Below, in pieces: positions 398 through 20,368 of a stretch of 20,368 nucleotides of DNA. Numbering within the stretch: position 1 is the first letter of the stretch; the number at the start of each line of letters is the position of its first letter. This stretch comes from Candidatus Naiadarchaeum limnaeum (GTDB lineage Archaea; Undinarchaeota; Undinarchaeia; Undinarchaeales; Naiadarchaeaceae). The notes beneath the pieces are model-generated. The model did no database searches, had not been told where the DNA came from, and worked only from the letters and a program-made list of their open reading frames with translations. The translations under genes and the position numbers were made by a program. The stretch spans positions 1 to 20,368 of the forward strand of contig DVAB01000006.1 of assembly GCA_014189685.1 (NCBI GenBank). Reading direction: 5' to 3'.

Positions 398-3300
398 ATG
401 GATTTGAAAAAGGGAGGCATATTATTGGTAGTATTAGTGCTAGCTGTATTGCTAGTTAGTGCACCAGCTCTTGCTTCGCACACTAAAAAAGTTATCTCGA
501 AAAGCACTGCTCCCCAAATTTCTATTTCTAAGGGCAAGCTTGAATCTGATGAGACAATTTTGCAGAAAAGAAAAGCGCTGAGCAATATTCAGGAAATTTT
601 AAACGAGCGCAAAAAAATAAAGCTTACAATTGAACAAAAACCACTCTCAAAAGGGCCGCAGCCTTTGAGCTCCCACTGCGTTGATTTAACTGGATTAAAT
701 GAGTATGTTGTAACTGCTAACACGGTTATCTGCCCCGGATATTATGAAATGAACGACACTGATATAGATGGGGCGATTATTTTTAATACAAACAATGTTC
801 AGTTAGATTGCGATGAAGCAATTATAAATGGAAGCGGAAGCGGATTTGGAATTTACGCAAACGGCAGCAGCGGAATTCAAGTTTTAAATTGCAATATTCG
901 CAATTATAGAGAGGGGATTTATTTTGATACTGTAACAAATGCATTAATTTCAAATTCAAATTTAAGCAATCATATTAGAGAGGGAGTTTTGCTTTTAGAT
1001 TCAAACACAAATACAGTTTCAAATAATAACATTTCAAACAATGCTTACCACTCTGTTCTGGATATAACCGGAAATGGAAACAAAATTCTCAGCAATTTAA
1101 TGACTTATGACACACTATGGGCGATGTACACCGCTGTTAGTAGCGCAAATGCAAACATTTCCGGGAATAATATTACTAATAGTGATTCAGGAGTTTGGCT
1201 TGGGGAATCAACCAATTCAGTTGTTGAAAACAATTTAATTCAGGCAAACACTTTGGAAGGAATCATAATTGAGGACGATGGCGGCCACGCAATAAAGGGA
1301 AATACAATTTTAAATAGCGGCCAAAATGGAATTCAAATCTTCAGTAATTCAAATTCAAACACAATTCAAAATAACACAGTAAGAAATAGTGGCTGGTTTG
1401 GAGTGCGCATATTTAGCGGCGCGAACACGGTAAAAGATAACAATATAAGTCAGAATTCGCTTGCAGGAATAAATGCAAGCTCTTCCGGAAATTTAATTTA
1501 TAACAATTATTTCTCAAACTCTTTGAATGCTTATTCTGCTCTTTCGAATAAATGGAACACAACTCAAACATCTGGGGCAAACATAATCGGCGGTCCATAT
1601 CTTGGAGGAAATTTCTGGAGCGATTATACAGGGGTTGATAACAATGTGGATGGATTAGGAGATACTTTAATTCCTTACAACTCAGGCGGAAAAATCCAGA
1701 CAGGAGGAGACTTTTTGCCTTTAGTAGTTCCTGGTGGCGGAGGAGGGCAGCAAAACACAGTTCCAACAATTTTCTTAGTAAGTCCTGCAAATGAAACAAC
1801 AACAAGCGATAACACTCCTGACAATGTGTTTTATTTTACAGACCCTGAAAATTTAACTGCTTCTTGTACACTTTATTATAACGGAACTTCAAAGGCATCA
1901 AATTCTGCTGTTCCAAACAACACGCAAACAACTCTAACTGCTTCTTTAACAGCAAATGGAATTTACAGTTGGTATGTAACTTGTAATGATGGAGTGGGAA
2001 GCGGCACAAGCTTACCATACACAATTACAATTAATGCGCCGCCTGATACAACTCCGCCTGTAATAACAATTGTTCCTCCAACAGATTCAAATTTAAGTGT
2101 TTTAAGAAATTGGTTTTACGTTAACATAACTTTAAACGAACAAGGAAGTTCTGCAAATATGGAAGTGAATGGAACTAATTACTCTATGTCACAAGGAACA
2201 ACTAATTTAGAATGGTTTGTAAATCGAACAGGACTTTTAGAAGGAAATTACACTTGGAGAGTATTTGCAAATGACCTGGCTGGAAACACTGGCCTAACAG
2301 GATATTCATGGGTTAATATAACCGTTCCTCCCGTTCCTCCGCAAATAAACACGATTCCAACAATTTTCCTTTTGGCGCCTGCAAATAATACATTAACAAC
2401 AGATGCAACACCAGTGCACCAATTCTATTTCACAGACCCTGAAAATAGCACGATTCCAACCTGCAGCCTCTATTATAATGGAACTTTCAAGGGCGGATGG
2501 TCAAATGTTGCAAACAATACTTGGTTTTTGCTTGAGGCTTCGCAAACTCAGAATGGAATTTATAGTTGGAATGTGGTTTGCAATGATGGAGTAGGAAGCA
2601 ATACATCTGAAACAAGAAGAATTTTAATAAACGCTGTAACTATTCCGAACACAGCTCCAACTATTTTCATAACTGCCCCTCTAAATAATACTGTAACAAA
2701 TAATAGAACATTACAGGTTGATTTCTACTTCACTGATAATGAGCAATTCGCTGGAACTTCAAGGTTTTACACAAATGGAACTCTGAGGGCAACAAACACA
2801 ACTACTTGGAATAACACCCCAACAAGTTTAATCTATGGAAATCTTTCAGACGGAATTTATAATTTCTGGATAAATGTTTCAGACGGCGGATTGCAAAACA
2901 GAAGTGAAATATACACTATTGCAATTGATGGAACAACTCCAGTGCTAACTTTTGTAAGTCCAACTCCGAGCAATCAGACAATTGCACAAAACTGGGCTTA
3001 TGTAAAGGTGAGCTCAAGTGAAAATCTGATTTCTGCAACTCTGGAATGGAATGGGGTAAATGAGTCCATGAGTGGAAGTGGAACAAATTGGTTTAAGAAC
3101 AAAACTTCGCTTGTGGATGGGAATTACACATTTAGAGTTTATGGAAACGATTTTCTGCCAAATACAGGAAAAACAGAGGGGAGGTGGGTAGTGATTGATA
3201 TAACTCCTCCTAGCCCGGTTACAAATCTGGGAGAAACTGCAACTGGAACAACTTGGATCTATTGGCAGTGGACAAATCCAAGCAATACTGATTTTAATCA

Positions 3301-6100
3301 TGTGGAAGTTTGGTTAAACGGAACGTTCATAGCAAATACAAGCGGCACCTCTTACAATGTAACAGGCTTAACTCCAAACACAGGATATCAAATTCAAGTC
3401 CGGCCAGTTGATAATGTTGGAAATAAAGGAGTGTGGACAAACGATACTGCATTTACCCTAGTTGCGCCTGATGTAACTCCGCCGCTAATAACAATCATTC
3501 CACCAACAGATGTAAACATTTCTGTAAATAGAAACTGGACATACTTTAACATAACTTTAAATGAATCAGGAAGCGGGGCTAATGTCGAGGTGAATGGCAC
3601 TAATTTCACTATGCTGCAAGGCTTGACTAACCAAGAGTGGTTCTTTAATTTAACTCAATTGGATACTGGAAATTACACTTATCGTTTCTTTGCAAATGAT
3701 CTTCCAGGAAATACAGCATTTACAGGATATTCATGGGTTAACATAAGCTGGAGTTCTACAGATACAAATCCCCCGGGAAGTGTAACTAATTTAAGAGACA
3801 CACAAAATGATACAACTTGGATTTTATGGAATTGGACAAACCCAACGGATTTAGATTTTAATCATGTAGAGATTTGGATTAATGGGACATTCAATGCGAA
3901 TGTTTCAACTGATTACATAAATGTAACTGGTTTGCTTCCAGATACAGGATATGAGATACAGACAAGAACAGTTGATAATTCTGGAAACATAAATCCAACT
4001 TGGGTTACAGATATGGGATGGACAAAGGCCCTTCCTGGTCCAGATTTAACACCTCCAACAGTAACATTTGAGAGTCCAACTCCTAACAACACAACTGTAA
4101 ACCAAAACTGGGCATACATAAATGTAAGCTTGAATGAGACAGGAAGCTCAGCAAATCTTGAATGGAACGGAGTGAATTACAGCATGTCCGGAAGCGGAAT
4201 GAATTGGTTTAGAAATATGACAACCCTTGCAAACGGAAATTACACTTTCAAAGTTTACGCAAGTGATTTGGCTGGAAATATTGGAGTTTCTGAGGAAAGA
4301 TGGGTTGAAATTTTTGTTCCACCGCAGTTAAACACAGTTCCAACAATTAACATTTTGTTCCCGCCAAACAACACTTTAACAACAGATGATACTCCTTCAA
4401 TCTGGTTTAGCATAACTGATCCTGAAAACGCAACAACACAAGCAACAATTTTCTTTAACGGAACAAACATGAGCTATAATCCCTCTGTAATAAACAATAC
4501 AGCAACAAAATTCACAGTTGGGCCGCTAGCACTTGGATTATGGACCTTCTATATTTACGCATTTGATGGAGTAGGTAGCGGCACAAGCTTGGTATATAAT
4601 ATTATAATTGCTCCATCTGGCGGCGGAATAGGAGCATTTGATGGGCCAACAATTTTCTTGGTAAGCCCGCCTGATAATGCAGTTACAAGTGACAATACTC
4701 CTGAGCATGTTTTCTATTATTTAGATAAGCAGCAGCCAACTTTAGCTTGTGCATTGAATTACAATTTATTACAACTTGCAGACAATTCAACCACACAAAA
4801 TAATACAAACACCTTACTTACCCCTCCAAGCCCGGTTGCTCTTGGAACTTATGAGTGGAACATCCTCTGCAACAATGGAACAGCTTGGATATTGAGTAAC
4901 TCTTCCACAATAGCAATAACTACTCCATCAATTCCAGGAGGCGGGGGAGGAGGGGGCGGGGGAGGAGGGGCACTGGGCACTTTTATTTCAGTTCCAAACG
5001 CAACTCTTGAACTTCCAACCTTGGAGCTCAGGCCACCTGCAACTCCTTCAGAACAAACCATAGGCATATCCGGACCAGTGGCTGTTGATGTTAGAGGATT
5101 GGGTTTTGCTGGACCAACAGGACTTGCAATTCTTGCAGGAAACCCATCTTTGTTCGCAGCATTGATTGGATTGGCGTTATTGTTAGCCTTACTATTCTTA
5201 TATTATAGAAGCAAGAAAAAGGGAGAGAAGAAGGAAGAAACTGAAGTTCCAAAACCGGCTGAGCCTTCTTTGCCAACATTACCTCCTGCTCCTACTACTG
5301 CTGAAACAGCACTGCCTAAGACTGAAAGTACTGAAAAAGTTATTGCAACAGCTGTTATTATTTTATTTGCTCTTACTTTGCTTCCGTTTGCATCAGCACA
5401 AACTGTAAATCTAAGTGAAGGGCAGCAATTAGGGAGCATCAACATAACTCCAGCAACTTTTACTAAAACAATATTACTAAATGTAACAAATAAGGGGAGC
5501 GTCCCAGAGGCATTTTATATCTCACTTTTTAGCGGCCCAAATTGGGCAGCAGTTCAGCCAGCAAGAGTCTCACTGAATATAAATGAAACAAAGAATATCA
5601 CTTTAACTTTAAAACCGCCTCTTGGTATATTAGGAGAGTATACTGTTAGGGTAAAGGCAGAATCCGTAAACAACCCAGAACTTTTTGCAACATATGATTT
5701 AAGAGTAATAGGCCCGACTCCCCTTGAACAAGGATTATCAGGAATGTTTTTGTTAGCAGGCACTAGGGCAGGCGCTTCAATTATGGGGGCGCTTATTTTA
5801 TTTGCACTAATGTTTGCATATTGGCATGAGCTTCCAGAGGAGAGAAAGAAAGAGAGTAGAAATAAAATGAGGAAATTAATCGGAAGAAAGCCATTGCCGG
5901 AGCCTGTTGTTGAGGTAGAGAAAAGGCCTGCTCCCCCGGATATTGAGAAAATTATAAGCGAAGTTTTTAAAGGAGTAGAGATAAAAGCGCCTTCTGTAAT
6001 TTCTATTGTTAAAAGAGCAGAAACAAAAATTGAACAAAAAATTCCTGTGCGGCTAATTCCATTTGAGAAAAGGCCTGGTAAATTGCTATGGGAGGTATAG
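398..6100 (+). CDS. Giant surface protein: NosD-like beta-helix, Ig/FN3 modules, two anchors and an internal signal sequence
   Basis: This 1900-aa envelope protein starts with a signal peptide (residues 1-26, hydrophobic core then ALAS). Residues about 92-440 form a parallel beta-helix of Asn-rich coils (many NNxI/ISNN repeats) ending in the NosD/PbH1-type cap GGNFWSDYTGVDNNVDG. About 11 Ig-like modules follow at roughly 452, 550, 651, 750, 846, 936, 1026, 1123, 1218, 1311 and 1415; those at 936 and 1123 are FN3-like (TGLTPNTGYQIQV). The ectodomain is packed with N-x-S/T sequons and poor in lysine. A run of 11 glycines near 1515 precedes the first membrane helix (about 1586-1606) and a KKKGEKKEE tail. 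A second signal-like helix (1648-1668, ending ASAQ), another beta domain (1669-1780), a third helix (about 1785-1808) and an 89-residue cytoplasmic tail follow. Likely an S-layer-associated, adhesin-like or glycan-binding protein; its ligand is unknown. Confidence 0.85.
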   Translation: MDLKKGGILLVVLVLAVLLVSAPALASHTKKVISKSTAPQISISKGKLESDETILQKRKALSNIQEILNERKKIKLTIEQKPLSKGPQPLSSHCVDLTGLNEYVVTANTVICPGYYEMNDTDIDGAIIFNTNNVQLDCDEAIINGSGSGFGIYANGSSGIQVLNCNIRNYREGIYFDTVTNALISNSNLSNHIREGVLLLDSNTNTVSNNNISNNAYHSVLDITGNGNKILSNLMTYDTLWAMYTAVSSANANISGNNITNSDSGVWLGESTNSVVENNLIQANTLEGIIIEDDGGHAIKGNTILNSGQNGIQIFSNSNSNTIQNNTVRNSGWFGVRIFSGANTVKDNNISQNSLAGINASSSGNLIYNNYFSNSLNAYSALSNKWNTTQTSGANIIGGPYLGGNFWSDYTGVDNNVDGLGDTLIPYNSGGKIQTGGDFLPLVVPGGGGGQQNTVPTIFLVSPANETTTSDNTPDNVFYFTDPENLTASCTLYYNGTSKASNSAVPNNTQTTLTASLTANGIYSWYVTCNDGVGSGTSLPYTITINAPPDTTPPVITIVPPTDSNLSVLRNWFYVNITLNEQGSSANMEVNGTNYSMSQGTTNLEWFVNRTGLLEGNYTWRVFANDLAGNTGLTGYSWVNITVPPVPPQINTIPTIFLLAPANNTLTTDATPVHQFYFTDPENSTIPTCSLYYNGTFKGGWSNVANNTWFLLEASQTQNGIYSWNVVCNDGVGSNTSETRRILINAVTIPNTAPTIFITAPLNNTVTNNRTLQVDFYFTDNEQFAGTSRFYTNGTLRATNTTTWNNTPTSLIYGNLSDGIYNFWINVSDGGLQNRSEIYTIAIDGTTPVLTFVSPTPSNQTIAQNWAYVKVSSSENLISATLEWNGVNESMSGSGTNWFKNKTSLVDGNYTFRVYGNDFLPNTGKTEGRWVVIDITPPSPVTNLGETATGTTWIYWQWTNPSNTDFNHVEVWLNGTFIANTSGTSYNVTGLTPNTGYQIQVRPVDNVGNKGVWTNDTAFTLVAPDVTPPLITIIPPTDVNISVNRNWTYFNITLNESGSGANVEVNGTNFTMLQGLTNQEWFFNLTQLDTGNYTYRFFANDLPGNTAFTGYSWVNISWSSTDTNPPGSVTNLRDTQNDTTWILWNWTNPTDLDFNHVEIWINGTFNANVSTDYINVTGLLPDTGYEIQTRTVDNSGNINPTWVTDMGWTKALPGPDLTPPTVTFESPTPNNTTVNQNWAYINVSLNETGSSANLEWNGVNYSMSGSGMNWFRNMTTLANGNYTFKVYASDLAGNIGVSEERWVEIFVPPQLNTVPTINILFPPNNTLTTDDTPSIWFSITDPENATTQATIFFNGTNMSYNPSVINNTATKFTVGPLALGLWTFYIYAFDGVGSGTSLVYNIIIAPSGGGIGAFDGPTIFLVSPPDNAVTSDNTPEHVFYYLDKQQPTLACALNYNLLQLADNSTTQNNTNTLLTPPSPVALGTYEWNILCNNGTAWILSNSSTIAITTPSIPGGGGGGGGGGGALGTFISVPNATLELPTLELRPPATPSEQTIGISGPVAVDVRGLGFAGPTGLAILAGNPSLFAALIGLALLLALLFLYYRSKKKGEKKEETEVPKPAEPSLPTLPPAPTTAETALPKTESTEKVIATAVIILFALTLLPFASAQTVNLSEGQQLGSINITPATFTKTILLNVTNKGSVPEAFYISLFSGPNWAAVQPARVSLNINETKNITLTLKPPLGILGEYTVRVKAESVNNPELFATYDLRVIGPTPLEQGLSGMFLLAGTRAGASIMGALILFALMFAYWHELPEERKKESRNKMRKLIGRKPLPEPVVEVEKRPAPPDIEKIISEVFKGVEIKAPSVISIVKRAETKIEQKIPVRLIPFEKRPGKLLWEV
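4943..4970 (+). other. G-quadruplex-capable G-run inside coding DNA
   Basis: Four runs of 5, 5, 5 and 4 guanines (4943-4947, 4952-4956, 4958-4962, 4967-4970) are separated by loops of 4, 1 and 4 bases. They sit on the coding strand in a very AT-rich context and encode part of the glycine run before the first membrane anchor. The sequence fits the standard G4 pattern; folding in the cell is inference. Confidence 0.5.
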
Positions 6101-6171: not shown

Positions 6172-8823
6172 ATGGATAGGATATTTGGCAAGGGAGTTGT
6201 GGGCATAATTGTAGGATTAGTTCTACTGGTAGCGCTTCCCGCTCTAGCTTCTGCTGCGCCGGATGTAACTATCACAGGAATAACTGTTTCACCATCTACT
6301 ACAGATGTTAATGAAGTTTCTACTGTTACTGCAACAGTTCAAAACATTGGGGATGTAACATCCACAGGAACATGGGTTGAATTCCTAATCACAAGGGGAA
6401 CCTCTATAATTGACAGGCAGAATATAACTGGATTGGCTTTAGACCCAATGGAAGTTCAGCCAGTTAGCATTCAGTGGACTCCTTTTGCAACAGGAACTCA
6501 TACAATACTTGTTACAGCAGGTGTTCCTGCAGATCCAAACACAGCAAATGATGCAACAAGCACTAATGTTAATGTTGGTGCAGGGGGAATTGTTCAGATT
6601 AAAAATTACTTTGTAACTCCAACTTTAGTTGTGGATTCAAATGGATGCCCAACACTAAGCCCGCTTGAGATAAGCGGATTTGTTCAGGAGGATAATGTTG
6701 GAACTTCTGATGGTGTTTTAATTTATGTTGATAATGATTTAGTTGATTTTGTTAGAGCAAGTTCTGCGCAGGATGGATTATTCGAGAGCTCAGTAAATGA
6801 TGTTTGCTTTGAGGAACCTGGAACTTATAATGTAACTGCAAATGTTGATCGCGGAAGCGGAACTATTGCAACAGCAACAGATACTGTAAATGTTCTCTTT
6901 TTAGATGAAGATGGAAGCGGAACAACTCCAACTCAGCAAAATCTTGTTGATGTTGAGGCTCTTCCAAGAATTTTAAGAGTTGGGGCAGGAGAGTTTTCAG
7001 AGTTCTTACTTTCAATTGAAAACTTAGGAAGAACAACTGATACTTACGAGATTAAAGTAAATGCTCAGTCTGAGATTGATCCATGGATTGATTTAGAAAC
7101 AAATCTGGTTACAGTTTCTCCTGGGCAGACAAAGTTTGTTTCATTATTCGTTGATGTTCCAAGAAATACAAGCGATGATTCTCATCCAATAAACGTTATA
7201 GTTCAGGGAAAATCAACAGATATTGACCGCTTGTACTTAGTTGTTGAGAATGCACAGTCAACTTCTTCAACAGCAGGCGGGGTAAAGCCTGACTATGCTG
7301 TGGATGTTGAGATTGCACCGCAGGGCCTTAGCCTTGAAGCAGAGGACTCTGGACAATATGTTGTAACAGTTGAGAATGTTGGACTGAAAACAGATACTTA
7401 TGAGTTAAATGTTTTGACCAGTGCAAAAATTGCAAGCTGGTTTAGACTTGAGAAAAGCAAGATAACACTTGCAACTGGGGAAAAGCAGCAAATAAAGTTA
7501 TTTGTTGATGCCCCGGAAGATGCACCTTCAAAATCCTATCCAGTAACTATTGAGGCAGACGGAGTTGCAATTGATCTAGACCGCGCAAGTTTAACAACTG
7601 TAAGAAAGGTTAGCGGATTTGATGTTGAGGTTGGAAAAGCTTCTGTAAGCCCGCAAAAAGTTCCTTCTGAGCCATCTCGTGGAGTTGCTGTAAAGGGAAT
7701 GGTAAGCTTTTTTGATTTAACAGGAGAGAGCGCAGGAGAGAGCGTTTTTGTTCGCTTGTATGTAAATGGGCAGCAAGTTGAATCGCAAAGCGTTTTCATT
7801 CCAAGCGGAGACTCAAAGCAGGTTTCATTTACTCTTGATACTGAAAATGACCCTGTAAGCTCTGAGCCAGGAGTTTATGATGTTTACTTAGTTGGATCTG
7901 TTGGACAAGAGGTTGATCGCGGAGCTTCTGCAACTTTAACACTTGTACAGCCAGGGGCGGCTGTGATAACTGGAATAACTCCAGTTGACTTAAACACAAG
8001 CGCAAACAAAGATGTTAGCCTTACTTTAACAATTAAAAACACAGACCTTCAGGACAACACTTATGTTATAACTGCTGATTCAATCGGAGGACTTGCAGGA
8101 AGAGTTGATGTCTCCCCAGGATTAATGAGTGTTGCAAAGAGCGAGACAAGAACTCAGGAACTCAAATTAAGCATTGGAAATGCTCCAGATGATTCCTATC
8201 CAGTGACAATAAGAATTGGAACAATTGGAACAACTGCAGAGAAAACTGTTACGGTAAATGTTAAGGGCGGACAGATAGCAGAGCCAGTTATTCCAACTGG
8301 TGGAAATCAAACTGGTGGCGGGGGAGTGCCAACAGGTTTCATATCCTTAACTGTTGGAGGAATATTTGCAGCAATAGTTGGAGCAATGTTACTCGCATTC
8401 TTATATGCACAGTATTACAAAACAAGAAAATTAGAGGAAATTGCAAAAGAGCCAGTAGAGGGAGCAGAAGAGGCAATGGAAGAGGTTCTTGGAAAAGAAG
8501 AGGTTGCAAAACCAGTAAAAATTGAGAAAGCAAAACCAAAGAAAGAAAAGCCATTTGTCTGGGAAGGCGCTGAGCCTCATGCAACTATTTCAAAATATGA
8601 AAAAGTAAAGGGAGAATGGCCAGCAGAGGAAGCTGAGAAAGTTTTGCTCAATCTAGAAAACATTAAAGATCAATTTAAGAAAACCGCAGAGGAAGCAGGA
8701 AAAGTTAAGGAAAAACTCTCCTCATTAGCAAGTGAGACAGCAACTTCTGTTAAGAAAAAAATCGCAAAAGTTGCAGATGCAGGATTGCTCGAGCCTTTAA
8801 AAGGCGCTGAAAGAGCAAAGTAA
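6172..8823 (+). CDS. CARDB-type surface protein with C-terminal anchor and long cytoplasmic tail
   Basis: This 883-aa protein has a signal peptide (about 1-28, VLLVALPALASA) followed by a classic CARDB-like beta domain (about 30-136: VTITGITVSPSTTDVNE, then VQNIGD). A cysteine-containing module follows at about 140-245. Two tandem related beta modules at about 257-365 and 373-480 share the patterns VENVGLKTDTYEL / IENLGRTTDTYEI and SLFVDVP / KLFVDAP. More beta modules run to about 700. A short Gly/Pro linker leads to one membrane helix (about 721-745) and a roughly 138-residue tail rich in Lys, Glu and Ala, likely coiled coil, containing KPFVWEGAE. Such modules usually act as spacers or in protein-protein contact on the cell surface. 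It follows another giant surface protein and precedes a MinD-like ATPase. The function is not recognisable beyond architecture. Confidence 0.85.
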   Translation: MDRIFGKGVVGIIVGLVLLVALPALASAAPDVTITGITVSPSTTDVNEVSTVTATVQNIGDVTSTGTWVEFLITRGTSIIDRQNITGLALDPMEVQPVSIQWTPFATGTHTILVTAGVPADPNTANDATSTNVNVGAGGIVQIKNYFVTPTLVVDSNGCPTLSPLEISGFVQEDNVGTSDGVLIYVDNDLVDFVRASSAQDGLFESSVNDVCFEEPGTYNVTANVDRGSGTIATATDTVNVLFLDEDGSGTTPTQQNLVDVEALPRILRVGAGEFSEFLLSIENLGRTTDTYEIKVNAQSEIDPWIDLETNLVTVSPGQTKFVSLFVDVPRNTSDDSHPINVIVQGKSTDIDRLYLVVENAQSTSSTAGGVKPDYAVDVEIAPQGLSLEAEDSGQYVVTVENVGLKTDTYELNVLTSAKIASWFRLEKSKITLATGEKQQIKLFVDAPEDAPSKSYPVTIEADGVAIDLDRASLTTVRKVSGFDVEVGKASVSPQKVPSEPSRGVAVKGMVSFFDLTGESAGESVFVRLYVNGQQVESQSVFIPSGDSKQVSFTLDTENDPVSSEPGVYDVYLVGSVGQEVDRGASATLTLVQPGAAVITGITPVDLNTSANKDVSLTLTIKNTDLQDNTYVITADSIGGLAGRVDVSPGLMSVAKSETRTQELKLSIGNAPDDSYPVTIRIGTIGTTAEKTVTVNVKGGQIAEPVIPTGGNQTGGGGVPTGFISLTVGGIFAAIVGAMLLAFLYAQYYKTRKLEEIAKEPVEGAEEAMEEVLGKEEVAKPVKIEKAKPKKEKPFVWEGAEPHATISKYEKVKGEWPAEEAEKVLLNLENIKDQFKKTAEEAGKVKEKLSSLASETATSVKKKIAKVADAGLLEPLKGAERAK

Positions 8824-14164: not shown

Positions 14165-15289
14165 ATGGCTCAAGAATTCAAAGTCACTCCTTGGGAAGTA
14201 AGTGGAATTGTTGACTATGATAAATTAATGAAGGAATTTGGGACTCAGCCTTTAACTGATAGCTTGCTTGAGAGAGTAAAAAAATTCGCAAAAGGAGACC
14301 TTCACTATTTGTTCAGAAGAAAAATCTTTTTTTCGCACCGCGATTTTGATTGGATTTTAAATGAGTATGAAAAAGGGAACAAGTTTTTTCTCTATACCGG
14401 CCGCGCGCCTTCAGGGCACACCCACTTAGGGCATTTAATTCCCTGGATAATTACTAAGTGGCTTCAGGATAACTTTAATGCTGAACTTTATTTCCAGATG
14501 TCGGATGATGAGAAATTTTATTTTAAGGAGGAACTTACCCTAGATGATACAACTAGGTTAACAAAGGAAAATATGCTAGATATTATTGCCCTTGGGTTTG
14601 ATCAGAAAAAAACGCATTTTATCATAAACACGCAACACGCAAAAATAATGTACAGGGAAGCTGCAAAAGTTGCGAAAAAACTTACAGTTTCAACAGCAAA
14701 GGCAGTTTTTGGATTAAGCGACAGAAATAACATTGGAGAATTTTTCTACACCTGCATGCAATCTGTTCCTGCTTTCCTTCCCTCAATCTTAAAGGGAAAG
14801 AATATTCCATGTTTAATCCCACTTGCGATTGATCAAGACCCGCATTTCAGAATTGCGCGCGATATTATTCCAAAATTAGGCTATTACAAGCCATCAATTC
14901 TCCACTGCAAATTCCTTCCTGCTTTAACAGGTCCTGATAGCAAAATGTCTGCTTCAGAGGAACAAACAGCTGTTTATACAACAGACACACCAGAAACTGT
15001 TGAGAAAAAAATAAAAAAATACGCATTTTCTGGAGGTCGCGATACAGTTGAGGAGCACAGAAAGCTTGGGGGAAATCCGGCTATAGATGTTAGCTATCAA
15101 TGGCTAACCTTTTTTGAGGAAGATGATAAGAAATTAAAGAGAATCTATGAGGATTATAAATCGGGGAAAATGCTCACAGGAGAATTAAAAGAAATTTTAA
15201 TTCAAAAACTTACTAAATTTTTAAAAGAACATCAGAGAAACAGGGAAAAGGCAAAAAAAGTTCTCAATAAATTTATTTTAAAGGATTGA
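14165..15289 (+). CDS. trpS: Tryptophanyl-tRNA synthetase, archaeal/eukaryotic type
   Basis: This class I enzyme charges tRNA-Trp. Its 374-aa sequence begins with the archaeal/eukaryotic N-terminal signature VTPWEVSG-IVDYDKLMKEFG. The ATP-binding HIGH-like motif is HLGH at 87-90 (preceded by YTGRAPSGHT). The tryptophan pocket and dimer region include FQMSDDEKF and AIDQDPHFRIARD. The KMSKS-like loop is KMSAS at 260-264. The C-terminal lysine-rich helices complete the anticodon-binding domain. The last 12 bp overlap the opposite-strand surface-protein gene, so the stop codons interlock. It probably shares a transcript with dys or uses a weak promoter at 14133-14142. Confidence 0.95.
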   Translation: MAQEFKVTPWEVSGIVDYDKLMKEFGTQPLTDSLLERVKKFAKGDLHYLFRRKIFFSHRDFDWILNEYEKGNKFFLYTGRAPSGHTHLGHLIPWIITKWLQDNFNAELYFQMSDDEKFYFKEELTLDDTTRLTKENMLDIIALGFDQKKTHFIINTQHAKIMYREAAKVAKKLTVSTAKAVFGLSDRNNIGEFFYTCMQSVPAFLPSILKGKNIPCLIPLAIDQDPHFRIARDIIPKLGYYKPSILHCKFLPALTGPDSKMSASEEQTAVYTTDTPETVEKKIKKYAFSGGRDTVEEHRKLGGNPAIDVSYQWLTFFEEDDKKLKRIYEDYKSGKMLTGELKEILIQKLTKFLKEHQRNREKAKKVLNKFILKD

Positions 15290-17332
15290 TGGCTCTTCTT
15301 CAGAAGGTACGACTGGAATTTCTTCCTCGCCGTCGCCGTATTTTTTCTTTGTATAGTATCTGTAAGTTACATATCCTAAAACTAGCGCAACAATTAACGC
15401 TCCAATCCAGCTTGCTCGCGCAAATGTGAAAAGTCCTGTTGGGCCAGCAGGAGTTTCAAGAACCACCTGAGGAGCTGCTTCTTCCCCTGAAGGCTCAACA
15501 ACTAAAATAAATGATGCAGAAGTTTCAAGCTTTCCGTCTGAAACAGTTATTGTTATTTTATGTGAGCCAATATCAGCCTCTTTTGGAACAAAGGCAATTA
15601 ACCCTGTTTCTTTTCCTATTGCAAACAAAGGAGTATCATCTTTAAATGTTAATGGGTCATCATTTGGATCGTCTGCGCTAACTTGATATGTAAATAATTT
15701 TCCTACTTTTGCAAACAGAGTTGGGATTGTTTCAATTGAGGGCGGAGCGTTAACATACACTTTACCACCTGTTGGAAGACTTCCTCCACCACCAACACTA
15801 GTACCACCTAATGGAGGCGGCGGGGGCGGAGGTTGGATTGTGAAGGTTGTGGTTGCGTTTGCCCAATTAAAAGCAAAATCACGGCAAGAGAGATAATAAG
15901 TGTAAGTCCCATATGGAAGCTCCAATTGTTGTTCATGATAGAAGCCTGTTGAATTTGCAAAGCTTGACATATTGCTGTAGGAACTTGTTGTTATATTGCT
16001 CCATAAGCATGTGGAAAAGTCGTTTGAGTTATCAGCGGTATTCAAGCTCAAAATTGGAGTTGTATCGCCTATTGTTCCGCTCGGCTGAATGTTTGAGAGA
16101 ATGGGAGGGGTATTATCAAGGAATATTGGAGGATAATTGGAAACGGAGTAGTTCACATTTCCTGCTAAATCTGTAACTGAGAAATTGTAAGTATAGTTTC
16201 CTTCTGGCATCATTGTTCCATTTATATTTGTCCCATTCCAAATCCAGTAAGCCCATGTGCCAGACTCGCTAACATTAGCAAAAATTATTGGATTACCGCT
16301 TGAAGTGACAAAATTATTTGCTGAGTCATAAACTGTGAAAAAGTAAGAAAGTGTGGGGGATAGGCTGTCGTTTGCAAACACGCTTAGGTTAGCAGTGTCC
16401 TGCCAGCCATCATTTACACCTGGAGAGAATGAGCCTGTCCATCCTAAATATTGAATTCCAGGAGCAACTGTATCATAAGTAACATACAACCATTGACCAC
16501 AACAAAGTGCTGCTGAGTTATTTAAGTTATCAGTTGCGCTGCTTGTTATGTTATATAGATTATTGTTAGTTGGGGTCCAGCTATAGGTCCAGCTTGTTGT
16601 TCCAGTAGCATTTACACAGGTTATACCAACTCCGTCTTCAAAGAAGCAGAATTGAACATATTGAACTCCGCTCTGCGGGTCAGAAGCAGTGCCATTTACA
16701 ATAATCGGATTTCGCCAGTGTGTATTGTTTAGAGGAGCTGTTATTGTTGAGGTTGGAGGGATATCGTCATTTATAATTGTTGAAGGCCGAGTTGCTGAGC
16801 CTGTTCCATTTACATTATCTAGTGTTTCAACAAGCCAGCTTGCTGTTGTGTTAGCTGAAACAAGAGGCGCCTGCGCATCAAACCAAAATGAAAGCTGCTC
16901 TCCGGTATCAATTGGATTGGCTGATGTGTTCCACATTATAATTAATATATTTCCACTCCCATCCTGTATTGTTGTATGGCTCCAATCTACTGGATCAGAA
17001 ATTGTTGAGTTATTAACTGTAAATTGAGCAACAGTTCCGTTCCAAACTGTTACATTTATTGCTACTATGGAATCTGGACCAAAAGGATTGGCCACTGTAA
17101 AGTTAAAATTCTCAACAAAAGTCTCGACAGTCCAGTTGTCATTTCCAGTTGTAAGTAGATTAATGGCGGGGTCGTGTGAATTCTCACTAACACCACCATC
17201 AGCAAAAACCACAATAGCTGAAAGAACAACAAAGAAACTAAAAGCTAAGGCCACCCCCCATAATGGCACTTTTTTATTTTCAAATTTCAGCTCTAAACAC
17301 CTACTTATTTTTGTGAATTTTTTACCTTTCAT
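15278..17332 (-). CDS. Ig/cadherin-like surface protein with Pro-rich stalk and C-terminal anchor
   Basis: This is a surface protein of 684 aa from ATG 17332 (690 aa if the in-frame GTG at 17350 is used). A minus-strand TATA box at 17351-17359 would start transcription at about 17330, so the leaderless ATG is preferred. A basic N-terminus (about 1-25) precedes one hydrophobic helix ending IVVFADGG, acting as signal peptide or anchor. The ectodomain has several Ig-like modules with sequons: a PPTSTITAPLNNT-type module, a DTVAPGIQYLGW module and a DNTPPILSNIQPS module. A seven-proline/glycine stalk follows, then a cadherin/He_PIG-like module (FTYQVSADDPNDDPL, then KITITVSDG). A membrane helix (WIGALIVALVLGYVTYRYY) and an acidic cytoplasmic tail end the protein. 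Its organisation and repeats resemble the 1900-aa protein. Partner unknown. Confidence 0.85.
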   Translation of the reverse strand: MKGKKFTKISRCLELKFENKKVPLWGVALAFSFFVVLSAIVVFADGGVSENSHDPAINLLTTGNDNWTVETFVENFNFTVANPFGPDSIVAINVTVWNGTVAQFTVNNSTISDPVDWSHTTIQDGSGNILIIMWNTSANPIDTGEQLSFWFDAQAPLVSANTTASWLVETLDNVNGTGSATRPSTIINDDIPPTSTITAPLNNTHWRNPIIVNGTASDPQSGVQYVQFCFFEDGVGITCVNATGTTSWTYSWTPTNNNLYNITSSATDNLNNSAALCCGQWLYVTYDTVAPGIQYLGWTGSFSPGVNDGWQDTANLSVFANDSLSPTLSYFFTVYDSANNFVTSSGNPIIFANVSESGTWAYWIWNGTNINGTMMPEGNYTYNFSVTDLAGNVNYSVSNYPPIFLDNTPPILSNIQPSGTIGDTTPILSLNTADNSNDFSTCLWSNITTSSYSNMSSFANSTGFYHEQQLELPYGTYTYYLSCRDFAFNWANATTTFTIQPPPPPPPLGGTSVGGGGSLPTGGKVYVNAPPSIETIPTLFAKVGKLFTYQVSADDPNDDPLTFKDDTPLFAIGKETGLIAFVPKEADIGSHKITITVSDGKLETSASFILVVEPSGEEAAPQVVLETPAGPTGLFTFARASWIGALIVALVLGYVTYRYYTKKKYGDGEEEIPVVPSEEEPSIL

Positions 17333-17343
17333 TTTGCTTATGA

Positions 17344-17384
17344 TGAACACTATTTAAGTATTATTGTGAACAGTTTTGAACAGT
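17344..17384. promoter_or_regulatory. Possible operator: phased TGAACAGT repeats
   Basis: TGAACAGT occurs at 17367-17374 and 17377-17384, exactly 10 bp apart. The related TGAACACT is at 17344-17351. They flank the minus-strand TATA box in the region between two divergent genes. One-helical-turn spacing suggests cooperative binding by a regulator; the regulator is unknown. Confidence 0.4.
17351..17359 (-). promoter_or_regulatory. TATA box for the 684-aa surface protein gene
   Basis: The minus strand reads ACTTAAATA here. A start 25-28 bp downstream falls on the ATG at 17332, which is the basis for choosing that start. Confidence 0.5.
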
Positions 17385-17469: not shown

Positions 17470-18957
17470 ATGGCAGAAAGAAAATATGATAAAATCTCGG
17501 CAATCGCACGCAGGCGGGGCTTTTTTTGGCCTAGCTCTGAGCTGTATGGCGGGCTTGCAGGATTTTATGATTACGGACCAATTGGAGCGCTTTTAAAGCA
17601 GAACATTGAGAAAGTGTGGAAAAAAATTTTTATCGCGCAGGAGGGGATGCTTTTGCTTGATACTCCAAATGTTATGGCTGATTCTGTTTTTCAGGCAAGC
17701 GGGCATTTGGAGCATTTTGCCGACCCTTTAGTTACCTGCACAGATTGCAACACAAATTTCAGGGCAGACAAGCTTGTTGAGGAAAAATTAAAAATAAAAA
17801 CAGAAGCAATGGGAGTTGATGAATTAAACGGGGCAATAATTGCAAATGGAGTTGCCTGCCCAAAATGCAAAGGCAAACTAGGAGAGGTTTACAAATTCAA
17901 CTTAATGTTTGGAACAGAGGTTGGCCCTGGAGAGGAAAAAAGAATTGCTTATCTGCGTCCCGAGACTGCGCAGGGAGCTTTTGTTTCTTTTGAAAGATTG
18001 TGGGAAGTTGCGCGAAAAAAACTTCCATTTGGGGCTGCGCTTGTTGGGCGCTCATATAGAAATGAAATTTCTCCAAGACAGGGGATGATTAGATTAAGAG
18101 AATTTTCACAGGCAGAGGCAGAGGTTTTCTTTAATCCAAGCGATAAAAAGCATCCGTGCTTTAAAGAGGTTGAAAAAGAAGAATTGAATTTGCTAACAAT
18201 TGAGGAACAGAAAAAAGGAAAATCTGAAAAGGGGGAAAAATTTACTGCAAAAGAGGCAGTGCACAAAAAAATAATCAAATCAGAGTTGCAGGCTTATTAC
18301 TTAACTCTTGCAAAACAATTTTTCAACAGAATTGGATTTCCAGATAGTTCAATGAGGTGCAGGCAACAACTTTCCGAGGAAAGAGCGCATTACTCAATAG
18401 ATACGTGGGATATTGAAATCCATTCAGAAGATTTTGGGTGGATTGAAGTGGCAGCAATTGCTGACCGCGCGGATTATGATTTGAAAAGGCATTCAGAAAC
18501 TGCAAAAAAGGATTTATCAGTTACAATTGATGGAAAAAAATTTTTGCCGCATGTGATGGAGGCTTCTTTTGGAATTGACAGGCCGTTTTATCTTTTGCTT
18601 GAGCATTCGCTTAAAGCAGAGGGAAAAAGAACTCTTTTCAAATTCAAAAAAAAGGTCGCGCCGTTTGAGGCTGCGGTTTTTCCGCTAGTGGATAAGGACA
18701 AATTGCCGGAAAAAGCTCTGGATATTTACAATATGCTCTTAGAAAATAATGTGATGGCTCAGTATGATAACTCTGGGAATATTGGAAAAATGTATGCACG
18801 CGCTGATGAGATTGGAATTCCGATTTGTGTAACAATTGATCATCAGACTTTAAAGGATGATACTGTAACCGTGAGATACAGAGATACAACAAAACAAAAG
18901 CGAGTTCATGTTAAAAAGAACTACGAAATACTTCATGAGATTTGGGAAAAAGATTGA
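17470..18957 (+). CDS. glyS: Glycyl-tRNA synthetase, class II alpha2 type
   Basis: This 495-aa enzyme charges tRNA-Gly as a homodimer. Motif 1 lies around YGGLAGFYDYGPIGALLK. A zinc-type insertion carries CTDCNTNF and, about 45 residues later, CPKC, giving four cysteines. YLRPETAQGAFVSFERL, then GRSYRNEISPRQGMIRLREF, forms motif 2, the ATP-binding arginine region. Motif 3 is VMEASFGIDRPFYLLL. The C-terminal anticodon-binding domain begins near VAPFEAAVFPL and ends at the stop TGA at 18955-18957. The length is slightly short for the archaeal family (usually 500-580), which fits a streamlined genome. The DUF4145/HEPN-like gene starts within a few bases of or inside its 3' end, so the two are probably co-transcribed. 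Confidence 0.96.
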   Translation: MAERKYDKISAIARRRGFFWPSSELYGGLAGFYDYGPIGALLKQNIEKVWKKIFIAQEGMLLLDTPNVMADSVFQASGHLEHFADPLVTCTDCNTNFRADKLVEEKLKIKTEAMGVDELNGAIIANGVACPKCKGKLGEVYKFNLMFGTEVGPGEEKRIAYLRPETAQGAFVSFERLWEVARKKLPFGAALVGRSYRNEISPRQGMIRLREFSQAEAEVFFNPSDKKHPCFKEVEKEELNLLTIEEQKKGKSEKGEKFTAKEAVHKKIIKSELQAYYLTLAKQFFNRIGFPDSSMRCRQQLSEERAHYSIDTWDIEIHSEDFGWIEVAAIADRADYDLKRHSETAKKDLSVTIDGKKFLPHVMEASFGIDRPFYLLLEHSLKAEGKRTLFKFKKKVAPFEAAVFPLVDKDKLPEKALDIYNMLLENNVMAQYDNSGNIGKMYARADEIGIPICVTIDHQTLKDDTVTVRYRDTTKQKRVHVKKNYEILHEIWEKD

Positions 18958-18965
18958 GGGGACTG

Positions 18966-19724
18966 GTGGCAAATGTTCTTGAAATGTTTAAGAAAAGAAT
19001 TAAAGAAGTAGATGATTCTGTAAAAAGTTTAGAATCCGGGAAAGAAATAAATTTTGCAGTTAAAAATGAATTTATGGATTATGGAAGCGGCCGCGCCTCG
19101 TATATGCGCGCAAATGTTGATTCTAATTTATTTAGGCTAAAAGAAAATTCCTGGGAATTAGTGGAACTTGGAGTAAATCCAAACAACAGGCAAATTATTT
19201 TGCAGATTTTAGGAAAAGCTGAAAGTTTTAAAAAAGGCGCGCAGCCGCCTGAGATAAGAAAAATAATTTCTGAGTTAACAAGCTTAACAAACAAATTAAG
19301 TTATATAAAAACAGTTGAGGATGACATTTCATTTATACAAATTCCGAAACTGCCAGAGGTGATTGCAGAGGAAATCGCAGCAGATTTAAATGAATTGAGA
19401 AAATGCTTTGTTTCAGGAGCTTACAGGGGTTGTGTTGTTCTCTGTGGCCGCGTAATGGAAACAGCATTGCACAGAAAATATTTTGAAGTTGCGGGCCAGG
19501 ATTTGCTTGAAACAGCCCCTAATATTGGGCTGGGGAATTTAATTGCAAAATTAAAAGAGCAAAATGTAAAAATTGACCCTGGATTGACACAGCAAATCCA
19601 CTTAATAAATCAAGTGCGGGTTTTTTCTGTTCATAGCAAGAAAGAGGCTTTTTACCCGAGCAAGGAGCAGGCGCAGGCGACAATTTTATTTACCTTAGAT
19701 GTTTTGAAGAAACTATTCGAATAG
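18966..19724 (+). CDS. DUF4145/HEPN-like protein
   Basis: The protein is about 252 aa from GTG 18966, preceded by GAGGGG; an in-frame TTG at 18942 or ATG at 18984 are alternatives. The N-terminal half (to about residue 125) is lysine-rich and helical with an unknown role. The C-terminal half matches a DUF4145-type helical domain: LNELRKCFVSGAYRGCVVLC, then GRVMETALHRKYFEV, GLGNLIAKLKEQ and QIHLINQVRVFSVHSKKE. That last segment carries R-x4-H (codons 19617-19634), the signature spacing of HEPN ribonucleases. HEPN domains with this motif often cut RNA, for example tRNA, while others only bind it. The gene sits directly behind glyS and overlaps the opposite CheD-like gene by 12 bp. No obvious antitoxin gene is adjacent. 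Cellular function is unknown. Confidence 0.7.
   Translation: MANVLEMFKKRIKEVDDSVKSLESGKEINFAVKNEFMDYGSGRASYMRANVDSNLFRLKENSWELVELGVNPNNRQIILQILGKAESFKKGAQPPEIRKIISELTSLTNKLSYIKTVEDDISFIQIPKLPEVIAEEIAADLNELRKCFVSGAYRGCVVLCGRVMETALHRKYFEVAGQDLLETAPNIGLGNLIAKLKEQNVKIDPGLTQQIHLINQVRVFSVHSKKEAFYPSKEQAQATILFTLDVLKKLFE
19713..19724. other. Palindrome shared by two stop codons
   Basis: CTATTCGAATAG is a perfect 12-bp palindrome. Read on either strand it gives the final codons Phe-Glu-stop of the two convergent genes, so both proteins end in LFE. Confidence 0.7.
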
Positions 19725-20168
19725 GTGATCAAGCCGTAAGGCCTTAAGAGCAAAATTTGAAGTGTCTTTTGAAAAAGAAGGTTCTCCCTTCTTAAGATCA
19801 AAATCCACAACAAGTGGGATATATTGCGAGTGGCCATAAGGGGCATTTGGGGTAATGCCATTCCTTGATAAAAAATCTTTAAGAATTTTTATAGTAGGCT
19901 TTATCGCAAGTTTTAGCCTTACCATCCAATTTGCATTATAATAAATATATGCCCTTACTTCACTTAAAGGAATTTTTTCCTTTTGAAACCACTTTAGTGC
20001 CTTCTCTAAACCAGCCCTTGTGCCACCCAAGCCATACTTAATATGTCCCATTGCACCAAATTTCTGCGTAGGAGAATAAAGAACTAGGACAACACATTCA
20101 ATAACAAATTCTGTGTGCAAAATTTGGGGGGCATATCCCTTCCCCCAGCCTCCAACTCCGATACGCAC
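19713..20168 (-). CDS. cheD: CheD-like deamidase-fold protein
   Basis: This 151-aa protein starts from GTG 20168, chosen because GGAGAAGG lies just upstream and a TATA box is suitably placed; the longer frame to ATG 20267 would read through promoter repeats. The sequence follows CheD from end to end. It starts IGVGG, then Thr19-x5-Cys25 (TEFVIECVV), LVLYSPTQKFGAMGH with His42, and a helix AGLEKALKWFQKEKI. YYNANWM sits where CheD has GGASM. A helix IKILKDFLSRNGI and a terminal strand VVDFDLKKGEP complete the fold. From memory of Thermotoga CheD, its putative triad Thr21, Cys27 and His44 has identical spacing. CheD deamidates chemoreceptor glutamines and partners with CheC. No chemotaxis gene is present here, so the substrate is unknown and the symbol marks family only. 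Confidence 0.7.
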   Translation of the reverse strand: MRIGVGGWGKGYAPQILHTEFVIECVVLVLYSPTQKFGAMGHIKYGLGGTRAGLEKALKWFQKEKIPLSEVRAYIYYNANWMVRLKLAIKPTIKILKDFLSRNGITPNAPYGHSQYIPLVVDFDLKKGEPSFSKDTSNFALKALRLDHLFE

Positions 20169-20179
20169 AATCCTTCTCC

Positions 20180-20241
20180 TAAATATATTTAGTGCCCAAA
20201 ACCTTTTTCTCATAAATATATTTAGTGCCCAAAACCTTTTT
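20180..20241. repeat. Perfect 29-bp tandem direct repeat carrying a TATA box
   Basis: Bases 20180-20208 and 20213-20241 are identical over 29 bp (33-bp period, 4-bp spacer). Each copy contains the near-palindromic AAATATATTTA, GTGCCCAAAACC and a T-run. The duplication lies entirely between the divergent CheD-like gene and pheS. Confidence 0.9.
20213..20224. promoter_or_regulatory. Bidirectional TATA box for pheS and the CheD-like gene
   Basis: TAAATATATTTA in repeat copy 2 lies about 46-57 bp before the pheS ATG (20270) and 45-56 bp before the opposite GTG (20168). Either direction would give leaders of about 20 nt. The copy-1 box (20180-20191) is too close to 20168 to serve that gene but could give an upstream pheS start. 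Confidence 0.5.
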
Positions 20242-20269: not shown

Positions 20270-20368
20270 ATGGATCTCCATCCTTTAGAAATCAAAGTAA
20301 TCGAAGGCCTGAAAAAGCTCGGCGGAAAAGGTTCTGCAAGCGTTGTTGCAGAGACGGCAGGAATTGAA
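20270..20368 (+). CDS. pheS: Phenylalanyl-tRNA synthetase alpha subunit, N-terminal fragment
   Basis: The frame opens with ATG at 20270 and runs off the window after 33 codons. MDLHPLEIKVIEGLKKL followed by GSASVVAETAGIE is the typical start of archaeal PheRS alpha: an LHPLExKVL helix, then a winged-helix AExxGI segment. The catalytic class II core is outside the window. The leader is about 20 nt with no strong Shine-Dalgarno. It is the third aminoacyl-tRNA synthetase gene within about 6 kb, after trpS and glyS. Confidence 0.8.
   Translation, partial: MDLHPLEIKVIEGLKKLGGKGSASVVAETAGIE

What the first reader, a model, noticed from the sequence alone, without database searches (positions are those of the whole stretch)
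19713..20168. Solitary CheD-like protein with intact Thr-Cys-His triad and no chemotaxis neighbours
Seen: Thr19, Cys25 and His42 with gaps of 6 and 17 residues, a GAMGH motif, an IGVG start and a collinear layout to the end. Known (from memory): the Thermotoga CheD triad Thr21/Cys27/His44 has the same gaps. Inference: an active glutamine deamidase or related hydrolase with a non-chemoreceptor substrate. Its nearest genes are HEPN-like, glyS and pheS. A stand-alone archaeal deamidase acting on translation or envelope proteins would be new.
Basis: partly seen in the sequence, partly recalled or inferred. Interest (0 to 1): 0.6.

Follow-up and report, generated by a model that had tools for sequence, protein, structure and literature searches.

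The report
Stand-alone CheD-like hydrolase in an archaeon
A small archaeon with no detectable chemotaxis receptors carries a 151-residue protein with the fold and the catalytic Thr-Cys-His of the chemotaxis deamidase CheD but none of CheD's other signature motifs; it belongs to a scattered, little-described set of archaeal enzymes that lie near both CheD and the eukaryotic N-terminal asparagine amidase NTAN1.

Summary
The minus-strand ORF 19713-20168 encodes 151 residues with Thr19, Cys25 and His42 at CheD spacing. No Pfam family matches, but profile-profile comparison with 26 archaeal CheDs (score 40.8; best of 300 shuffles 25.2) and fold comparison (T. maritima CheD, Z 14.3; human NTAN1, Z 11.8; YfiH, up to 9.4; [quoted passage not shown] It is not an ordinary CheD: GGA..F, IGxxN, EDxGG and GR motifs are gone, and the 98%-complete genome has no Pfam CheD, no CheW domain (hence no CheA or CheW) and no chemoreceptor above threshold. 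It is not unique: profile searches of 394 archaeal genomes found about 17 further sub-threshold CheD-like proteins, mostly in genomes of about 1 Mb, nearly all keeping Cys and His; one also passes Pfam's NTAN1 cut-off. The neighbours carry no functional hint: four same-order genomes keep glyS-HEPN-pheS without this gene, so it was inserted here or lost in the others. Most likely it is an active thiol amidohydrolase (protein deamidase) with a non-chemoreceptor substrate.

The parts
19713..20168 (-). CheD-like protein, 151 aa, GTG start; overlaps the 3' end of the convergent HEPN gene by 12 nt
20112..20114 (-). codon of Thr19, counterpart of CheD Thr21 and NTAN1 Ser69
   Evidence: residue numbers of CheD and NTAN1 from PMC7022378
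20094..20096 (-). codon of Cys25, predicted nucleophile, counterpart of CheD Cys27 and NTAN1 Cys75; invariant in the 13-row orphan alignment
20043..20045 (-). codon of His42 in GAMGH, predicted general base, counterpart of CheD His44 and NTAN1 His92; invariant in the 13-row orphan alignment
20174..20239 (.). tandem duplication of a 33-bp unit holding the palindromic AT-rich core TAAATATATTTA, between the CheD-like gene and pheS; probably promoter DNA for one or both divergent genes (inference)
18942..19724 (+). neighbour: HEPN (DUF4145) protein, conserved next to glyS and pheS in four related genomes; not part of the CheD-like unit
17470..18957 (+). neighbour: glycyl-tRNA synthetase
20270..20368 (+). 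neighbour: start of pheS (phenylalanyl-tRNA synthetase alpha subunit), cut by the contig end

Best explanation
The gene encodes a small stand-alone cysteine amidohydrolase of the CNF1/YfiH-like superfamily, in the CheD/NTAN1 part of that superfamily. Cys25 would act as nucleophile on a carboxamide (or other acyl) carbon, His42 would activate the thiol, and Thr19 would orient His42, giving an acyl-enzyme that water resolves with release of ammonia: deamidation of a Gln or Asn side chain. Because the protein lacks the conserved non-catalytic motifs of CheD, including the segment that bears CheC-binding residues, and because no chemoreceptors were found in the genome, the substrate is not a chemoreceptor. 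Because it is only 151 residues long and lacks the C-terminal region by which NTAN1 restricts itself to N-terminal Asn, an internal side chain on some folded protein is the more likely target. Shown: fold relation (on a predicted model), triad, absence of detectable chemotaxis genes, absence of the gene from the same place in relatives, existence of similar stand-alone proteins in other small-genome archaea. Inferred: that it is active, that the reaction is deamidation, that the substrate is a protein.
For: hhalign to archaeal CheD, score 40.8, E 3.5e-6, 133 columns, above all 300 shuffles. An AlphaFold2 model from the window protein plus one relative (pLDDT 61.7, pTM 0.64) has T. maritima CheD first (Foldseek E 2e-5; Z 14.3 over 132 residues), then human NTAN1 (Z 11.8 over 140), then YfiH proteins (Z 7.5-9.4), and nothing else above Z 5.4. 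Even the model from the single sequence had CheD first by Z (Z 8.3; Foldseek probability 0.98). Cys and His are invariant in 13 divergent archaeal orphans, as expected of an active enzyme family. A profile of these orphans without any CheD retrieves most of the archaeal CheDs seen at E 1e-16 to 1e-5. No PF03975, PF01584 or above-cut-off PF00015 in the genome, while the same searches ring in control genomes. Mechanism of the Cys/His/(Ser or Thr) triad and role of the NTAN1 C-terminal region: PMC7022378.
Against: No substrate, partner or operon is known. The residue before Cys, Ser in 23 of 23 archaeal CheDs, is Glu24 here, and only 12 of 35 strongly conserved CheD positions are kept, so activity could be altered or lost. 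Two orphans show that the triad can decay (G333 lacks Cys; G002 has Glu in place of Thr). Model confidence is moderate. The coding score is the weakest of the window's genes. CheC, CheY and archaellum genes were not searched for.
Confidence: 0.62

Rival explanations
1. An archaeal NTAN1-type enzyme: it deamidates N-terminal Asn (or Gln) of proteins and so makes N-terminal Asp/Glu, possibly as a degradation mark.
For: Second-best fold match is human NTAN1 (Z 11.8, 140 residues), whose Ser69/Cys75/His92 have the same 6/17 spacing (PMC7022378). The loop after His is short as in the orphans that lean to NTAN1; one of these (L064) passes the PF14736 cut-off (35.2 bits against 24) and another is near it (L061, E 0.011).
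Against: The window protein itself has no PF14736 match, its match to the NTAN1-leaning orphans covers only 30 columns, CheD scores higher in sequence and fold, and it lacks the C-terminal region that gives NTAN1 its N-terminal specificity (PMC7022378).
Confidence: 0.13
2. A CheD relic: a laterally acquired or inherited CheD drifting after loss of chemotaxis, with no function or only a binding role.
For: No chemotaxis genes found, lost CheD motifs, absent at this place in four relatives, weak coding score. In B. subtilis, CheD works mainly by binding CheC rather than by deamidation (PMC3513319), so non-catalytic roles exist in the family.
Against: An uninterrupted frame with all three catalytic residues while 23 of 35 conserved CheD positions changed suggests that selection has kept the active site. 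Orphans of other lineages share this pattern and group apart from CheD in the tree (85/92 support).
Confidence: 0.13
3. A YfiH/LACC1-like purine nucleoside phosphorylase or peptidoglycan-editing amidase acting on small molecules.
For: YfiH proteins are the third group of fold matches (Z 7.5-9.4), and the same-order orphan L060 matches PF02578 weakly (E 0.0069).
Against: The window protein has no PF02578 match, CheD and NTAN1 score clearly higher, and YfiH proteins (234-272 residues in the matched chains) are much longer.
Confidence: 0.07
4. A translation-linked deamidase acting on GlyRS, PheRS or the HEPN protein.
For: Adjacent to glyS-HEPN and pheS.
Against: Opposite strand to those genes, and absent from the same block in four related genomes where HEPN and pheS are only about 40-160 nt apart; the other orphans sit beside unrelated genes.
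Confidence: 0.03

Closest known systems
CheD chemoreceptor glutamine deamidase (PF03975; T. maritima 2F9Z chain C)
   Same: Fold over nearly the whole length (Z 14.3, 132 residues); Thr/Cys/His with identical spacing; order of strands and helices; full-length profile alignment
   Different: Below Pfam and NCBIfam thresholds; lacks the LGSC context, the LP..KYxD insert, AKxxGGA..F, IGxxN, EDxGG and GR motifs; no chemoreceptor, CheA/CheW or Pfam-level CheD found in the genome
NTAN1, protein N-terminal asparagine amidohydrolase (PF14736; 6A0E)
   Same: Fold (Z 11.8, 140 residues); Cys/His with a hydroxyl residue six before Cys; not a chemotaxis protein
   Different: No PF14736 match for the window protein; half the length; no C-terminal specificity region
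YfiH / DUF152 / LACC1 family (PF02578)
   Same: Superfamily fold, Cys and His
   Different: Lower fold scores, no sequence match, shorter
CNF1-type Rho-activating domain
   Same: Same superfamily by fold (Z 4.3-4.6)
   Different: Much weaker fold match than CheD and NTAN1, and no sequence match found
Archaeal stand-alone CheD-like orphans found here (e.g. L028/L078 of a DPANN archaeon, WAMD01000032.1)
   Same: Same triad spacing, no Pfam family over cut-off in most; L028 protein is 31% identical in the pairwise alignment
   Different: Very divergent from each other (14-26% identity to the window protein); different neighbourhoods; some lean to NTAN1

Membership tests
CheD (PF03975) | Score above the curated Pfam cut-off (25 bits) | tested here: not met
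   No match for the protein; family search of the own genome finds nothing; NCBIfam PRK13495 11.5 bits against 243
CheD (PF03975) | Thr-x5-Cys-x16-His catalytic residues | tested here: met
   T19, C25, H42
CheD (PF03975) | Conserved non-catalytic motifs (LGSC, LP, AKxxGGA..F, IGxxN, EDxGG, GR) | tested here: not met
   12 of 35 positions conserved in at least 80% of 23 archaeal CheDs are kept; the motif glycines, Asn and Arg are not
CheD (PF03975) | CheD fold | tested here: met
   2F9Z_C: Foldseek E 2e-5, Z 14.3, 132 residues, rmsd 3.1; model pLDDT only 61.7
CheD (PF03975) | Chemoreceptor substrate and CheA/CheW pathway in the genome | tested here: not met
   PF01584 none; PF00015 best 13.8 bits against cut-off 34.6; genome 98% complete, so absence is strong but not absolute
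CheD (PF03975) | Glutamine deamidase activity on chemoreceptors | not testable with these tools
   needs biochemistry
NTAN1 (PF14736) | Score above the curated Pfam cut-off (24 bits) | tested here: not met
   No match for the window protein or own genome; one orphan relative, L064, passes with 35.2 bits
NTAN1 (PF14736) | Cys/His plus Ser/Thr six residues before Cys, NTAN1 fold core | tested here: met
   Spacing as Ser69/Cys75/His92 (PMC7022378); Z 11.8 over 140 residues
NTAN1 (PF14736) | C-terminal region that selects N-terminal Asn | tested here: not met
   Protein ends at 151 residues; alignment spans NTAN1 51-230 of 310
YfiH/LACC1 (PF02578) | Score above Pfam cut-off | tested here: not met
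   No match
CNF1/YfiH-like cysteine hydrolase superfamily | Alpha-beta-beta sandwich fold with Cys and His | tested here: met
   The top 18 fold matches by Z are members (CheD, NTAN1, YfiH/YlmD/DUF152); CNF-type domains follow at Z 4.3-4.6

The most novel reading that the evidence does not exclude
Small-genome archaea carry a rapidly diverging family of stand-alone protein amidohydrolases that links CheD with eukaryotic NTAN1, so that protein deamidation as a regulatory or quality-control mark exists in archaea without chemotaxis, and NTAN1 may descend from such an archaeal enzyme.
Probability: 0.2. Interest if true: 0.72.

Novelty: new variant of a known kind. Interest (0 to 1): 0.45.

Why it matters
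CheD is known as a chemotaxis enzyme, and NTAN1 was described as having no sequence similarity to known proteins (PMC7022378). Finding divergent triad-bearing relatives of both in archaea with tiny genomes, at least one of them without detectable chemotaxis genes, suggests that protein deamidation has an unknown use there, and gives a handle on where NTAN1 came from. No paper in the searched library describes them, although that library is not complete.

Tried and rejected
(1) Single-sequence searches for close homologues: none in GTDB r220 genome contigs, IMG/VR, phages, plasmids or related genomes at E 0.001; only profile searches worked. (2) A first hhalign run was spoiled because minus-strand loci had been read on the wrong strand; repeated correctly. 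(3) Weak hits L031, L034, L035, L038, L048, L054 and L089 are other proteins or chance. (4) A link to translation through the neighbours was rejected by synteny. (5) A defence or phage role: no PADLOC or PHROG match. (6) The tree separates orphans from CheD (85/92) but cannot place the window protein (end branch 4.39); not used to claim kinship inside the orphans. (8) Naming the organism: not possible with the genome handles; it is archaeal (deoxyhypusine synthase in the window, and its same-domain kin include archaea), in a sparsely sampled phylum (6 genomes held).

Full report
Observation. The minus-strand frame 19713-20168 translates to 151 residues from a GTG start. The six-frame coding score favours this frame, though it is lower than for the other genes of the window. 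Upstream lies a 33-bp tandem duplication with an AT-rich palindrome, so starts further upstream, which would translate the duplication, are unlikely.

Is it CheD-like? Pfam has no match; NCBIfam gives CheD at 11.5 bits, E 0.25, in the right register. Against a profile of 26 archaeal CheDs collected, hhalign scores 40.8 (E 3.5e-6, 133 columns) while 300 shuffles reach at most 25.2. AlphaFold2 with the single sequence is poor (pLDDT 49.5) yet has CheD first by Z (8.3). With one relative added it improves to pLDDT 61.7 and pTM 0.64, and fold comparison gives T. maritima CheD Z 14.3, human NTAN1 Z 11.8 and YfiH proteins Z 7.5-9.4, with all other folds at 5.4 or less. [quoted passage not shown] CheD is the closest branch, NTAN1 the next.

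Is it CheD? Of 35 positions conserved in at least 80% of 23 full-length archaeal CheDs, 12 are kept, among them Cys and His; the residue before Cys is Glu instead of Ser, and the GGA..F, IGxxN, EDxGG and GR motifs are lost. The GGA..MF segment contains, by my reading of the alignment, the residues (M101, F102) whose change in B. subtilis CheD affects deamidation or CheC binding (PMC3513319). The genome (984 kb, 98% complete) has no PF03975, no PF01584, hence no CheA or CheW, and no MCP above threshold. It is thus not a chemotaxis CheD. CheC, CheY and the archaellum were not tested.

Is it alone? Single-sequence searches find nothing. With a mixed profile and a profile of orphans only, 394 archaeal genomes yield about 17 further CheD-like proteins below Pfam's CheD cut-off in 14 genomes (counting the truncated G227 and the Cys-less G333), mostly of about 0.3-1.3 Mb. 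Most keep hydroxyl-x5-Cys-x16-His; Cys and His are invariant in the 13 rows of A4. Exceptions are G333, where Cys is lost, and G002, where Thr is Glu. One domain sits in a 1335-residue open frame (L062). L064 passes the PF14736 (NTAN1) cut-off with 35.2 bits and L061 is just below. The orphan-only profile retrieves true CheDs at E down to 1e-16; since the orphans had been chosen with a profile that held CheDs, this is consistent rather than independent evidence. In a tree orphans and CheDs fall on two sides of a branch (85/92), with the window protein on a very long branch whose place is unsure. The nearest named relative is a protein of a DPANN archaeon (WAMD01000032.1).

Surroundings. In four genomes of the same order the block MinD-EndA-DHS-TrpRS-glyS-HEPN-pheS is kept in whole or large part, with HEPN and pheS about 40 nt (three genomes) or 159 nt (G002) apart and no CheD-like gene between. 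G002 has its own CheD-like gene elsewhere, beside a CTP synthase-like gene (L060, named by eye). The window gene is on the opposite strand to its neighbours. It was inserted in, or lost from, this place without disturbing the block, and the neighbours say nothing of its substrate. The other orphans have unrelated neighbours. No PADLOC or PHROG match.

Mechanism. In NTAN1 and CheD, Cys attacks the amide, His activates it and Ser/Thr orients His; loss of Cys or His abolishes NTAN1 activity, and loss of Ser lowers it five-fold (PMC7022378). The same residues at the same spacing here make a thiol amidohydrolase the best reading. NTAN1's N-terminal specificity comes from a C-terminal region that this protein lacks, so an open, CheD-like active site acting on internal side chains is more likely. 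This last step and the protein nature of the substrate are inference.

Novelty. Fold, triad and reaction type are known; the stand-alone setting, the loss of CheD motifs and the bridging towards NTAN1 in archaea do not appear in the literature searched. I rate it a new variant of a known kind.

Noticed in passing
window 18942-19724 and L090, L091, L092, L093: A HEPN (DUF4145) protein is conserved beside glyS and next to pheS in four related genomes (46-51% identical), which hints at a function linked to tRNA or aminoacyl-tRNA synthetases; it also matches phrog_1305 (E 2.7e-5).
   Followed up: partly
window 15278-17350: A surface protein gene with Ig-like repeats on the minus strand sits between the TrpRS and GlyRS genes, where related genomes have other small genes: a second lineage-specific gene in the same conserved block.
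   Followed up: partly
window 20174-20239: Tandem duplication of a 33-bp unit (97% identical) with palindromic TAAATATATTTA between divergent genes; perhaps a doubled TATA promoter.
   Followed up: partly
L064:3538-4581 (minus strand): Archaeal protein whose C-terminal part passes the Pfam cut-off of eukaryotic NTAN1 (35.2 bits against 24).
   Followed up: partly
L062:1213-1842 (minus strand): CheD-like domain with intact triad spacing inside a 1335-residue open frame that fills the contig.
   Followed up: no
L067:1384-1998: CheD/NTAN1-like protein that has lost the catalytic Cys but kept the rest: a possible pseudoenzyme.
   Followed up: no
L065:8219-8686 and L066:7668-8165: In two small genomes the CheD-like gene has similar neighbours (by eye cobalamin adenosyltransferase-like and succinyl-CoA ligase-like genes), the only shared neighbourhood seen.
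   Followed up: no
L068, L069 (genome G064) and L063, L085, L086 (genome G123): Two and three CheD-like paralogues in one small genome each.
   Followed up: no
window 398-6100 and 6172-8823: Very large predicted surface proteins with repeats and a C-terminal membrane segment (by eye).
   Followed up: no
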